A DNA stretch of 64,000 nt from NCBI RefSeq assembly GCF_001999325.1, contig NZ_MVAR01000005.1, positions 1-64,000 on the forward strand, read 5' to 3'. Positions within the stretch are counted from its first letter, which is position 1; every line of letters starts with the position of its first letter. This document shows, one piece after another, positions 55,983-60,932 of this stretch. A model generated the notes under the pieces. It ran no database searches. It saw nothing but the letters and a program-made list of their open reading frames with translations, and was not told the origin of the DNA. Made by a program: the position numbers and the translations under genes. Origin of the DNA: Thioalkalivibrio versutus. GTDB taxonomy: Bacteria; Pseudomonadota; Gammaproteobacteria; Ectothiorhodospirales; Ectothiorhodospiraceae.

Positions 55983-57392
55983 TCAGACCAGAATCAGCAG
56001 CGTCGCCAGCCCCAGGAATGACAGGAATCCGACCACGTCGGTGACGGTCGTCAGGATGACCGCTCCGGAAAGTGCGGGGTCCATGCCGAGGCGTTTCAAG
56101 GTCAGCGGTATGGTGATCCCGGCCACGTTGGCCACCGTCATGTTGATGATGATCGCCAGGGTGATGATGAGGCTGATCGCCAGGTCCTGGAACCACAAAT
56201 GGGCCACCAGGCCGACAACCAATGCCCAGATAATCCCGTTGGCCAGGCCGACCCACAGCTCCTTGTTCAAGAGCCACCAGCGATTCGTACCGGCGATTTG
56301 ACCCATGGCCAGGCCACGGATGACCACAGTCAGGGTCTGGCTCCCGGCAATACCCCCCATGCTGGCCACCACGGGCATGAGTACCGCCAGGGCGACGACC
56401 TGCGAGAGCACGGCCTCGAACTGGCCAATGACGTAGGCGGCCAGAAAGGCCGTTGCCAGATTGATGCCGAGCCAGATACCGCGACTGCGAATACTGAACC
56501 GGATCGGTGCGAACAGCTCGCCTTCTTCCTTGACCCCGGCCATCCCGAGCAGGGTCGCGTCCGCATCCTCGCGCACGATCTCCATGATGTGGCTCATGTT
56601 CAGCTGACCGACGAGGACGCCTTCGGCGTCTACCACGGGCGCAAACGGCAGTTCCCGGGCACGCAGGATGGTTGCCGCCTTGCGGATATCCATGGTGTCG
56701 AGCAGGCACGTCGGCATGTACATGAAATCGGCAACCGTCCTTTTTTGATGGTTGCGCACGAGGTCGACCAGACGTAGCGAGCCAACGAGGCGGGCATCCT
56801 TGTCCGTGACCAGCAATTCCTGCGACTCGCTGTCCAGCGAGTGACTAATGCGTACAAACCGTTGAACGGCCTCGAGTGTTACATCCGGTTTCACATTGGT
56901 GGTTTCGGGATCCATGTAACGCCCGACCGCATCGTCATCGTAGCCATGAAGCGTCGTGACATGGTGTCGCACTCCCGCGGCCAGCGTTTCGATCACGGAT
57001 TCTCGGATCGGATCGTCGATCGTGTCCAGGAGCTCCGCCACCGTTTCCGGTGGAAGATCCTGCGCCAGGGCCGTGACCTCCTCGACCGGCATGTCCGCCA
57101 TCAAATGCTCGCGGGCATCCACGCCGACTTCGGCCAATACCTCCCCGCGCTGGTCTTGAGGTATGCAGGACCAGATGCGTTCCCGCTCACGGAATGGAAA
57201 CGATTCCAGCAACAAGGCGATGGCCTGTTCATCCAGGCCTTGCAGGAAATCGCAGACAGCGGCTTGGGAGTCGGATTCGGCGAGCTGCGCCTGCAGGCCA
57301 AGCAACAACTCTTCGATCGTGGCGGAACCGTCACTGGCCGGAACCGAAGTCTCCCGTTGCGGATCAGGGGCGTCTTCGGTGGCGGGAGTCAT
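55983..57392 (-). CDS. mgtE: Magnesium transporter MgtE
   Basis: A 469-residue protein. The N-terminal MgtE superhelical domain (about 25-150) is followed by two CBS domains (about 155-275, with YMDPETTNVKPDVTLEAV and LLDTMDIRKAATILRARELPFAPVVD). Five transmembrane helices occupy about 305-469, including the selectivity-type segment PVVASMGGIAGSQTLTVVIRGLA. It imports Mg2+ with gating by cytosolic Mg2+. It stands between two junction repeats, so it may have arrived or moved with an insertion. AGAGG precedes the ATG. Confidence 0.95.
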   Translation of the reverse strand: MTPATEDAPDPQRETSVPASDGSATIEELLLGLQAQLAESDSQAAVCDFLQGLDEQAIALLLESFPFRERERIWSCIPQDQRGEVLAEVGVDAREHLMADMPVEEVTALAQDLPPETVAELLDTIDDPIRESVIETLAAGVRHHVTTLHGYDDDAVGRYMDPETTNVKPDVTLEAVQRFVRISHSLDSESQELLVTDKDARLVGSLRLVDLVRNHQKRTVADFMYMPTCLLDTMDIRKAATILRARELPFAPVVDAEGVLVGQLNMSHIMEIVREDADATLLGMAGVKEEGELFAPIRFSIRSRGIWLGINLATAFLAAYVIGQFEAVLSQVVALAVLMPVVASMGGIAGSQTLTVVIRGLAMGQIAGTNRWWLLNKELWVGLANGIIWALVVGLVAHLWFQDLAISLIITLAIIINMTVANVAGITIPLTLKRLGMDPALSGAVILTTVTDVVGFLSFLGLATLLILV

Positions 57393-57494
57393 TAGCAGGC
57401 CTCTTCAGTCCAGGTGCCGGGGTCCAACCGCAACCCTCTCCTGCGGTCCTGACATATGGTACATGGCCACCGCCCGGCCCGACGGGTGACCGCT

Positions 57495-57524
57495 AGGGTC
57501 GGACCACGGTAACCACCTGACTCC
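57495..57524 (+). repeat. GGGTCGGACCAC intergenic repeat, copy C
   Basis: AGGGTCGGACCAC, then GGTAACCA, then CCTGACTCC. It shares 13 + 9 bases with copy A and 19 bases with copy B. It lies between mgtE and rlmM. Confidence 0.65.
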
Positions 57525-57594
57525 ACGTATTTTTTGCCCACAAAAACCACCCAATGAGACGCTTATTCGTGCAATTTCGGACGCAAAACGGTCG

Positions 57595-57645
57595 CGTCAG
57601 GGCGAGTACATCCAATTCAGCTCCGCTCGACATGCACGGTGATCT
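57595..57645 (+). repeat. Junction repeat, right copy (yjbQ stop remnant + rlmM 3' end)
   Basis: CAGGGCGAGTA (57598-57608) equals the last bases of yjbQ; it is followed by the rlmM 3' end. Alignment with the middle copy continues through ACATGCACGG. It marks the right edge of the inserted DNA. Confidence 0.7.
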
Positions 57646-58797: not shown

Positions 58798-60531
58798 TCA
58801 GCGATCCAGGCCAGGATCACCCGCCACGTTCTTCAGCTTCGGCAGATAGGGCTTGCCGGGGCTGATGGTTTCGCGATCACGCAGATACCCGGCGACCACC
58901 TCCCAGACCGGATCGGTATCCAGCGGCTCGTGGACATTGGCCCAGCCGGCCACCACGTAGTTCTTGTCCGGGTCCAGCGGCTCACCGTTGATGTGCATGT
59001 CGCTGATACGGCTACCCATCGATTCGTGCGGATCGATGGTGTATTCGATGCCGGAGGTTCGCACCATGTCCCCGCCGCGGTGATGGTAGGGATTGGCATT
59101 GAAGATCGAGTTGGCCACGTCCTCCAGGGCATTCTTGAGCTGCGCACCGGTCATCTCGTTGCGCTGCGTCTCCGAATAGGTGGTCGCGGTCTGCGTCATC
59201 AACTCCTCGAAGGTGATGGGCGAACCCGGCAGGACGCTAATGCCCCAGCGGAAGCCGGGCGACAGGGCCACCTCGGCATCCATTTCCTTGATCATCGCAT
59301 CCATGATGACCTCGTCGAAGGTACCGTTGAAGTTGCCGCGGCGGTAAAGAACACCGTCGGTTACGGCCAGTTCTTCATTCAGTTTGTCCTCATAGGGCTC
59401 GCGCACCGAGCGGATGTGCTCCTCCATCTCGGCATCCGCCTCGATCAGGTTGGAGAACACCGGCAGCAGCGTGAACTTGTAGTCGCGGATGCCGCTGTCG
59501 GTCACGTCGAGATCCATCACGCCAAGGAACTTGCCATTGGAACCGGCATTGGTGACCAGCGTGGTCTCGCCGCCGACATTCTCGATCTCCATCGCGCCCG
59601 GCACCGCGTCATGCGTGTGCCCGCCCATGATGATGTCCACATCGCGCAGGCGACGGGCCATCTCCATGTCGGTGACCATCCCGTTGTGCGACAGGATCGC
59701 CACCACCTTGGCGCCCTTCTCGCGGCACTCGTCGATCATGCGCTGCATGTTCTCGTCGCGGATGCCGAAGCTCCAGTCCGGGAACATGTAGTCGGGGTTG
59801 GCCACGGATGTATAGGGAAACGCCTGGCCGATCACGGCGACCGGCACGCCATTCATCTCGCGGATGGTATAGGGCTCGAACACCGGGTCGCCCCAGTCGC
59901 GATCCTCGATGTTCTGCGCCAGGAACTCGATGTTGTTGGGTTTGAAGTCGTTTTCGATGATCTCCATCACCCGCTCGTCGCCGAAGGTGAACTCCCAGTG
60001 GCCGACCATGATGTCCACGCCCAGTAGTTTCTGCGCATCGACCATGTCCTGCCCGTTCGTCCACAGCGATGTCGCGGAGCCCTGCCAGGTGTCGCCACCA
60101 TCCAGCAGCAGGGAATTCGGGCGCTCCGCGCGCAGCTTCTGGATCAGCGTGGACAGATGGGAGAACCCACCCAGACGACCGTATTTCTCGGCCGCATACT
60201 TGAAGTCCATATGGGTGACAGCATGCGCCAGCGGCGTGCCCGGCTGGATATCAAAATATTCGAGCATGTCCTTGCCGGCCAGCACCGGCGGCTTGCCCTG
60301 CATGTCGCCCACGCCGATGTTCACGTCCGGCTCGCGGAAGTGCACCGGCTTCAGCTGCGCGTGGCAGTCGGTGTAGTGCAACAGCGACACGTTGCCGAAT
60401 TTCGGCAGGTCGTACATGTTCGCATCGGCCGGCTTCCAGGACCCCTTCTCGCCAGCCCAGGCATTCATCGAGAAGCCGGCGGCACTGGCCGCGACCATGG
60501 CTTCGAGAAACTCTCTGCGCGTAAGACTCAT
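58798..60531 (-). CDS. soxB: Thiosulfohydrolase SoxB
   Basis: A 577-residue periplasmic enzyme. The Tat signal is at the N-terminus (LTRREFLEAMVAASAAGF, twin Arg at 5-6). The 5'-nucleotidase/metallophosphatase fold shows dimanganese ligands in HYTDCHAQLKP, DGGDTWQG, VGHWEFTFG, LSHNGM and MGGHTHD. It hydrolyses the sulfonate from SoxYZ-bound thiosulfate in the Sox pathway. It stands alone, away from soxXA/YZ, as in many Chromatiales. AAGGAG lies seven bases before the ATG. Confidence 0.97.
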   Translation of the reverse strand: MSLTRREFLEAMVAASAAGFSMNAWAGEKGSWKPADANMYDLPKFGNVSLLHYTDCHAQLKPVHFREPDVNIGVGDMQGKPPVLAGKDMLEYFDIQPGTPLAHAVTHMDFKYAAEKYGRLGGFSHLSTLIQKLRAERPNSLLLDGGDTWQGSATSLWTNGQDMVDAQKLLGVDIMVGHWEFTFGDERVMEIIENDFKPNNIEFLAQNIEDRDWGDPVFEPYTIREMNGVPVAVIGQAFPYTSVANPDYMFPDWSFGIRDENMQRMIDECREKGAKVVAILSHNGMVTDMEMARRLRDVDIIMGGHTHDAVPGAMEIENVGGETTLVTNAGSNGKFLGVMDLDVTDSGIRDYKFTLLPVFSNLIEADAEMEEHIRSVREPYEDKLNEELAVTDGVLYRRGNFNGTFDEVIMDAMIKEMDAEVALSPGFRWGISVLPGSPITFEELMTQTATTYSETQRNEMTGAQLKNALEDVANSIFNANPYHHRGGDMVRTSGIEYTIDPHESMGSRISDMHINGEPLDPDKNYVVAGWANVHEPLDTDPVWEVVAGYLRDRETISPGKPYLPKLKNVAGDPGLDR

Positions 60532-60763
60532 ATGGATCTCCTTGGTGGCTTGGTTTTATCCGGGACGCCAATCGCACCCCTTACCAAGCTCCCGACGCAC
60601 GGCCACCGCGAATGTTCCCCGGACCGGGCGGGGGAATGCGCACAACAAAAGCGTATTTTCGCGCTGTTTGATGGAGATCGGGAGGAAAACACGCCATTTC
60701 CTGAGTGTTGGCGAATTTCCATCTTTTTGCCAGGCCCGTCACATTTCGCACCGGTGCAGACAC
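60532..60763. other. Leader region of soxB
   Basis: 232 bases upstream of soxB. Apart from the AAGGAG ribosome-binding site, no promoter box is convincing. The remainder up to 60987 holds the sRNA, its terminator and FNR box. Confidence 0.5.
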
Positions 60764-60793
60764 AAAAAAGCCTGCTATCCGGAGATAGCAGGC
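60764..60793 (-). terminator. Intrinsic terminator of the predicted sRNA (and read-through from fba)
   Basis: A perfect 10-bp stem (60770-60779/60784-60793) with a 4-base loop is followed on the minus strand by T6 (60764-60769). It is 195 bases downstream of the fba stop. Confidence 0.93.
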
Positions 60794-60884
60794 CAAGACG
60801 CGACATACACCGTCGGAAGCAATCGGCCCGCAGCGCACGCTGGGGGATCGTGCATCCCTTGCTGGGCCGAGGATCGGATCCGAC
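60764..60884 (-). ncRNA. Predicted FNR/Anr-activated small RNA (about 121 nt)
   Basis: The transcript is predicted to start near 60884 (GTCGGA) from the FNR-dependent promoter just upstream and to end at the terminator at 60764. The 5' GTCGGA pairs with TCCGAC at 60812-60817, and an inner CGGCCCAGC/GCTG-CGGGCCG stem (60822-60833 with 60861-60870) gives a compact structure. No ORF is evident. Size and layout resemble E. coli FnrS (122 nt) but the sequence is different. It is inferred from sequence features only. Confidence 0.5.
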
Positions 60885-60890
60885 GATCTC

Positions 60891-60932
60891 AGGCTAGTCA
60901 GCCTTCCGACGGTCTTTCTTGATCCAGATCAA
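60891..60932 (-). promoter_or_regulatory. FNR/Anr box with -10 element (class II promoter)
   Basis: TTGATCCAGATCAA at 60919-60932 (minus strand TTGATCTGGATCAA) is a perfect TTGAT-N4-ATCAA box. A -10 TAGCCT (60891-60896, minus) lies 22 bases downstream, which is the exact class II spacing (box centred at -41.5). Confidence 0.66.

What the first reader, a model, noticed from the sequence alone, without database searches (positions are those of the whole stretch)
60764..60932. Predicted oxygen-responsive sRNA between soxB and fba
A perfect FNR box (TTGATCTGGATCAA on the minus strand) is followed after exactly 22 bases by TAGCCT and, about 121 nt after the predicted start, by a strong terminator. 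The first bases of the predicted RNA pair with an internal segment, consistent with the chosen start. The architecture is like FnrS of E. coli and the Anr-dependent sRNAs of Pseudomonas, but the sequence looks new. In a sulfur oxidiser it could tune sulfur oxidation or carbon metabolism to oxygen.
Basis: partly seen in the sequence, partly recalled or inferred. Interest (0 to 1): 0.66.

Follow-up and report, generated by a model that had tools for sequence, protein, structure and literature searches.

The report
FNR-controlled small RNA in Thioalkalivibrio
Upstream of the soxB gene in the sulfur-oxidising soda-lake bacterium Thioalkalivibrio lies a gene for a previously undescribed small RNA of about 120 nucleotides that the oxygen sensor FNR almost certainly switches on when oxygen runs low, and an 18-letter stretch of it is identical in 13 species although most of the sequence around it has drifted to chance level.

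Summary
Minus-strand TTGATCTGGATCAA (60932-60919), a 22-nt spacer, TAGCCT, a predicted start at 60884 and a terminator ending at 60764 are all present. The site is centred at -41.5, the standard position of an activating FNR site. Homologues occur in 13 of 30 Thioalkalivibrio genomes, plus two divergent ones. Across the two main clades, spacer, hairpin and flanks are at chance identity (25-31%), while the FNR-box arms and an 18-nt linker GUGUAUGUCGCGUCUUGG are 100% identical and the -10 is 83%. The 5' stem and terminator pair in 13/13 sequences with compensatory changes. FNR and Hfq are encoded. soxB has its own conserved promoter-like motif, so this is not its leader. Outside the genus nothing was found: 367 sampled genomes of the class, a linker scan of 84,980 species, Rfam. 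Best reading: an FNR-activated, trans-acting sRNA pairing through the linker. Targets are open: soxB's start region is a poor match; a GntP-type permease is the best, weak, candidate. It works like FnrS/SicX but is a separate family. No expression data exist here.

The parts
60919..60932 (-). FNR box TTGATCTGGATCAA, centred at -41.5 from the predicted start
   Evidence: arms 100% identical in 13 genomes
60897..60918 (-). 22-nt spacer: length fixed in 13 genomes, sequence not conserved
60891..60896 (-). -10 element TAGCCT (TAG[C/A/G]CT in the family)
60764..60884 (-). predicted sRNA, 121 nt (118-127 nt in relatives)
60879..60884 (-). 5' arm of outer stem (GUCGGA)
   Evidence: pairs in 13/13 with compensatory U-A to C-G change
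60812..60817 (-). 3' arm of outer stem (UCCGAC)
60793..60810 (-). invariant linker GUGUAUGUCGCGUCUUGG, mostly unpaired in predicted folds (last two bases enter the terminator stem); proposed base-pairing seed
   Evidence: 100% identical in 13 genomes, one substitution in each of two further ones
60764..60794 (-). intrinsic terminator, 11-bp stem plus six U
   Evidence: two compensatory pairs between clades
60594..60618 (-). separate ECF/sigma-E-like promoter motif of soxB, GGAAC-N16-CGTC (not part of the sRNA; shows it is a separate unit)
   Evidence: 13/13 genomes
58798..60531 (-). soxB (thiosulfohydrolase), downstream neighbour in all 15 loci
   Evidence: TIGR04486, 812.8 bits
60988..61992 (-). 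class I fructose-bisphosphate aldolase, upstream neighbour in 13 loci, gene not found in the two distant genomes
   Evidence: NF033379

Best explanation
This is a stand-alone gene for a small regulatory RNA of about 120 nt. When oxygen is low, FNR with its iron-sulfur cluster binds the box at -41.5 and recruits RNA polymerase (class II activation) to a weak -10, giving an RNA from about 60884 to 60764. The RNA folds into a 5' hairpin that protects its end, an open linker GUGUAUGUCGCGUCUUGG and a terminator with a U tail. The linker is inferred to pair, probably with Hfq, with several mRNAs near their start codons and so lower translation or stability of proteins not wanted at low oxygen. Shown here: anatomy, spacing, strong selective conservation, base-pair covariation, and presence of FNR and Hfq genes. 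Inferred: transcription, FNR dependence, Hfq use, trans-action and targets.
For: 13 genomes: box arms 100%, spacer exactly 22 nt, TAG[CAG]CT, predicted RNA 118-127 nt. Cross-clade identity: box arms 1.00, -10 0.83, linker 1.00, against spacer 0.29, hairpin 0.31, 60 nt upstream 0.30, downstream 0.25. In five genomes only the 3' part was matched by DNA search, yet all five carry the perfect box at the same spacing. Outer stem and terminator pair in 221/221 cells with 16 both-side changes against 6.1 in shuffles; hairpin helices pair in 92-98% of cells in clade 1. FNR orthologue over cut-off, with the cysteines and the recognition helix LTQETISRL kept; Hfq in 29/30 genomes. Other perfect FNR boxes precede ccoN, a COX1-like gene and a di-haem cytochrome c peroxidase, as expected of an FNR regulon. 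In E. coli, 19 of 23 FNR-activated promoters with known start have the site at -41.5 +/- 4, fnrS at -42.5 (PMC3688515).
Against: No transcript data. The -10 is poor by sigma-70 consensus. No general excess of pairing between the linker and gene starts was seen in a 464-kb sample, and whole-genome pattern counts were not above the reversed-pattern control, so targets are unproven. Constant linkage to soxB in 15/15 loci leaves room for a local role.
Confidence: 0.82

Rival explanations
1. It is a 5' leader or attenuator of soxB: FNR starts a soxB transcript and conditional read-through of the terminator decides soxB expression.
For: soxB is the next gene downstream, same strand, in all 15 loci, even where fba is absent.
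Against: The 171-253 nt between terminator and soxB are not conserved (25% across clades just after the terminator) apart from soxB's own GGAAC-N16-CGTC promoter motif (13/13) and ribosome-binding region. The terminator is always strong and no alternative antiterminator fold was seen in the MFE predictions.
Confidence: 0.08
2. It is a longer RNA starting inside the FNR box from the upstream TATATT, closed by the repeat ACCGTCGGAAG/CTTCCGACGGT, with FNR as repressor.
For: In the window alone the 11-bp inverted repeat is perfect and TATATT precedes the box; the longer RNA also folds well.
Against: Neither the upstream arm nor TATATT is conserved in relatives, while TAG[CAG]CT and the 22-nt spacing are.
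Confidence: 0.03
3. The conserved segment encodes a small protein starting at the AUG in GUGUAUGUCGCGU (MSRLGLL...).
For: An AUG lies in the invariant segment and the fourth residue would be L, I or V in the variants.
Against: Over the first five codons no third-position change occurs and the one variable base is a first codon position; the frames then run through the terminator and end differently between clades.
Confidence: 0.03
4. The invariant linker binds a protein (titration) instead of pairing with mRNAs.
For: Complete invariance of 18 nt and no clear set of complementary mRNA sites.
Against: No repeated protein-binding motif such as GGA hairpins; linker mostly open in predicted folds, U-tailed terminator and hfq present, as for Hfq-type base-pairing sRNAs.
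Confidence: 0.1

Closest known systems
FnrS (E. coli and other enterobacteria)
   Same: FNR-activated, about 120 nt (own knowledge), FNR site near -41.5 (fnrS -42.5, PMC3688515), ends in an intrinsic terminator; represses many mRNAs in trans.
   Different: No Rfam match to FnrS for this RNA; even at E up to 5 only two irrelevant weak hits, so not the FnrS family; different genomic neighbours (own knowledge for fnrS).
SicX (PA1414) of Pseudomonas aeruginosa
   Same: Anr-box driven, low-oxygen-induced, species-restricted sRNA with a conserved pairing region (PMC10247376).
   Different: SicX is restricted to P. aeruginosa and proposed to activate ubiUVT translation; no direct alignment was made here.
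PaiI and PhrS (other P. aeruginosa low-oxygen sRNAs)
   Same: Anaerobically induced sRNAs linked to oxygen or nitrate regulation (PMC5703892, for PaiI; PhrS from own knowledge).
   Different: PaiI depends on NarXL; no match to such families in the Rfam search.
Thioalkalivibrio structured RNAs of the 50-genome survey (mgtE, aceE-II, ykoW, smtA 'Soda Lake RNA' motifs)
   Same: Genus-restricted structured RNAs found from Thioalkalivibrio intergenic regions (PMC11109978).
   Different: Those named in the main text sit by other genes; soxB, FNR and aldolase are not mentioned. The supplement could not be read, so an unnamed entry for this region is not excluded.

Membership tests
FNR/Anr-activated sRNA (functional class) | FNR box at about -41.5 of an sRNA start | tested here: met
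   Perfect box at -41.5 of the predicted start in 13/13 genomes, near-perfect and one nt closer in 2 more
FNR/Anr-activated sRNA (functional class) | FNR protein with Fe-S cysteines and TTGAT-reading helix encoded | tested here: met
   NF008365 over cut-off in G000; CQHCTLRQLC, a later Cys, LTQETISRL
FNR/Anr-activated sRNA (functional class) | Transcript induced at low oxygen and lost in fnr mutant | not testable with these tools
   needs RNA from cultures
FnrS (Rfam family) | Match to the Rfam covariance model | tested here: not met
   No FnrS match at gathering score or at E<=5
FnrS (Rfam family) | Known FnrS target set repressed | not tested
   targets not examined one by one
Hfq-dependent trans-acting sRNA | Intrinsic terminator with U tail | tested here: met
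   11-bp stem and six U, 13/13
Hfq-dependent trans-acting sRNA | Conserved accessible seed | tested here: met
   18-nt invariant linker, mostly unpaired in six folded members (a 3-bp hairpin is predicted within it)
Hfq-dependent trans-acting sRNA | hfq gene present | tested here: met
   G000 and all 23 good genomes of the genus
Hfq-dependent trans-acting sRNA | Conserved mRNA targets | tested here: inconclusive
   No enrichment in sample; one partly conserved candidate, GntP permease
cis-acting leader of soxB | Conserved leader continuous with soxB mRNA | tested here: not met
   Intervening sequence unconserved, soxB has its own promoter motif

The most novel reading that the evidence does not exclude
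A genus-specific FNR-driven sRNA family, held next to soxB for the whole history of this Thioalkalivibrio lineage, forms the post-transcriptional arm of oxygen control in obligate chemolithoautotrophic sulfur oxidisers, with one 18-nt linker serving several start-codon sites such as that of a GntP-type permease (AAAGGACGCGACAUGC).
Probability: 0.35. Interest if true: 0.62.

Novelty: new member of a known kind. Interest (0 to 1): 0.52.

Why it matters
FNR-activated sRNAs are known from heterotrophs such as enterobacteria and pseudomonads; none was found described for chemolithoautotrophic sulfur oxidisers in the papers searched. Thioalkalivibrio lives on opposing gradients of oxygen and sulfide and is used to remove sulfide from gas, where oxygen supply decides between sulfur and sulfate (own knowledge). 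An FNR-run sRNA would be a post-transcriptional control point there, and the sharply bounded linker makes target finding and mutational tests direct. It is also a clean example of an FnrS-like design with unrelated sequence.

Tried and rejected
Rfam at permissive threshold: two irrelevant hits. Plasmid collection: no match. Order and class search with the covariance model: beyond the 13, two real distant members (L027, L028); L029 is only a terminator match without linker or box, L030 has neither. Exact 19-nt linker search in 84,980 genomes: Thioalkalivibrio plus three chance hits without box or terminator. Longer RNA closed by the upstream inverted repeat: not conserved. Small protein: rejected on codon-position pattern. 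Target search: linker complement in G000 and G013 and duplex energies over 364 start regions in a 464-kb sample, no excess over 30 shuffled linkers. soxB start region -11.5 kcal/mol and fba -19.2 against a sample mean of -15.5. GntP permease: -25.4 in G000, 14 contiguous pairs over SD and AUG; GGACGCGA or close to it kept in most of 11 orthologues, all in sRNA-bearing genomes, but four sRNA-bearing genomes lack the gene. One helix was entered one column off; one search is the corrected count.

Full report
Observation. The minus strand of 60764-60932 holds a perfect FNR palindrome TTGATCTGGATCAA, a 22-nt spacer, TAGCCT, and 121 nt from the predicted start to the end of a strong intrinsic terminator. 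The box centre is 41.5 nt upstream of the predicted start. The genome has only seven such perfect boxes and none of the reversed control pattern. The predicted RNA folds better than all 200 shuffles (z -3.93).

Family. A DNA search of 30 genomes of the genus found 13 matches; an exact linker search in a named collection identifies the genus as Thioalkalivibrio, including T. thiocyanoxidans ARh2, ALJ3, ALJ7, ALE14, ALE31, AKL19, ALMg11 and others. All 13 have both box arms perfect, exactly 22 nt of spacer and TAG[CAG]CT, followed by a predicted RNA of 118-127 nt. Five of them were found by their 3' third only, so their boxes are an independent confirmation. The loci fall into two clades. Between the clades the spacer (29% identity), hairpin (31%), upstream (30%) and downstream (25%) sequences are at chance level, while box arms and the 18-nt linker GUGUAUGUCGCGUCUUGG are 100% identical and the -10 is 83%. 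Purifying selection is the only plausible reading.

Structure. The 6-bp outer stem (first bases of the RNA) and the 11-bp terminator pair in every one of 221 cells, with 16 cells changed on both sides against 6.1 expected from shuffles, and slid controls pair at 34-53%. In clade 1 the inner hairpin helices pair in 92-98% of cells, with four doubly changed pairs in the main one. The linker is mostly unpaired in all six members folded, apart from a predicted 3-bp hairpin and the first bases of the terminator stem.

Distant members. A covariance model finds two more (L027, L028) with box TTGATCTGCATCAC (9 of 10), 21-nt spacer, TACAGT or TACACT, linker with one change (GTATTGG, GTGTTGG) and a different terminator. 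There fba is missing but soxB is still downstream. Nothing was found in 367 sampled genomes of the class outside the genus or in the other genera of the family at a credible score. The family is confined to part of Thioalkalivibrio on present evidence.

Stand-alone unit. Between terminator and soxB lie 171-253 mostly unconserved nt plus a conserved GGAAC-N16-CGTC, an ECF/sigma-E-like promoter motif, in 13/13. soxB therefore seems to have its own promoter, and the RNA is not its leader.

Regulator. The genome encodes an FNR orthologue (NF008365 over cut-off) with the N-terminal cysteine motif, a later cysteine and the helix LTQETISRL, and close to solved FNR structures. Other perfect boxes precede ccoN, a COX1-like gene and a di-haem cytochrome c peroxidase, a sensible low-oxygen regulon. 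Position -41.5 is that of 19 of 23 FNR-activated E. coli promoters (within 4 nt); fnrS is at -42.5 (PMC3688515). Hfq is encoded.

Function. The best-supported model is a trans-acting, base-pairing sRNA made at low oxygen, with the linker as seed. This step is inferred. Start regions in a 464-kb sample show no general excess of pairing, as expected if targets are few. soxB is a poor match and fba a moderate one, so the idea that it acts on its neighbours is not supported. The best single candidate is a GntP-family permease whose AAAGGACGCGACAUGC pairs 14 bp in a row over the Shine-Dalgarno and start codon in the window's species; GGACGCG is kept in 10 of 11 orthologues. I give this target about 0.25.

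Known or new. Low-oxygen sRNAs under FNR or Anr are a known kind (FnrS; SicX, PMC10247376). This one has no sequence relationship visible to Rfam and no paper found describes it. A survey of structured RNAs included a Thioalkalivibrio genome (PMC11109978); its main text does not mention this locus, but its supplement was not readable. It is a new family of a known kind.

Noticed in passing
window 60594-60618 (minus strand): soxB has a conserved ECF/sigma-E-like promoter motif GGAAC-N16-CGTC in 13 of 13 relatives, suggesting soxB is under an extracytoplasmic-function sigma factor.
   Followed up: partly
L098, L093, L100, L097, L102 (boxes at about position 1501): Other perfect FNR boxes of the genus lie upstream of ccoN, a short COX1-like membrane protein and a di-haem cytochrome c peroxidase: a first outline of the FNR regulon.
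   Followed up: partly
L166-L176: A GntP-family permease in an autotrophic sulfur oxidiser, found only in sRNA-bearing genomes of the genus, with an unusually conserved ribosome-binding region GGACGCGA(C/G)AUG.
   Followed up: partly
L097 near position 1430 (minus strand): In G013 the start of the FNR-boxed COX1-like gene, ACGCGACAUGCAUC, pairs 14 nt with the sRNA linker (with two G-U); its orthologue in the window's genome lacks this.
   Followed up: partly
window 57390-57600 (minus strand): The region upstream of mgtE should hold the 'mgtE motif' riboswitch candidate described only from Thioalkalivibrio (PMC11109978).
   Followed up: no
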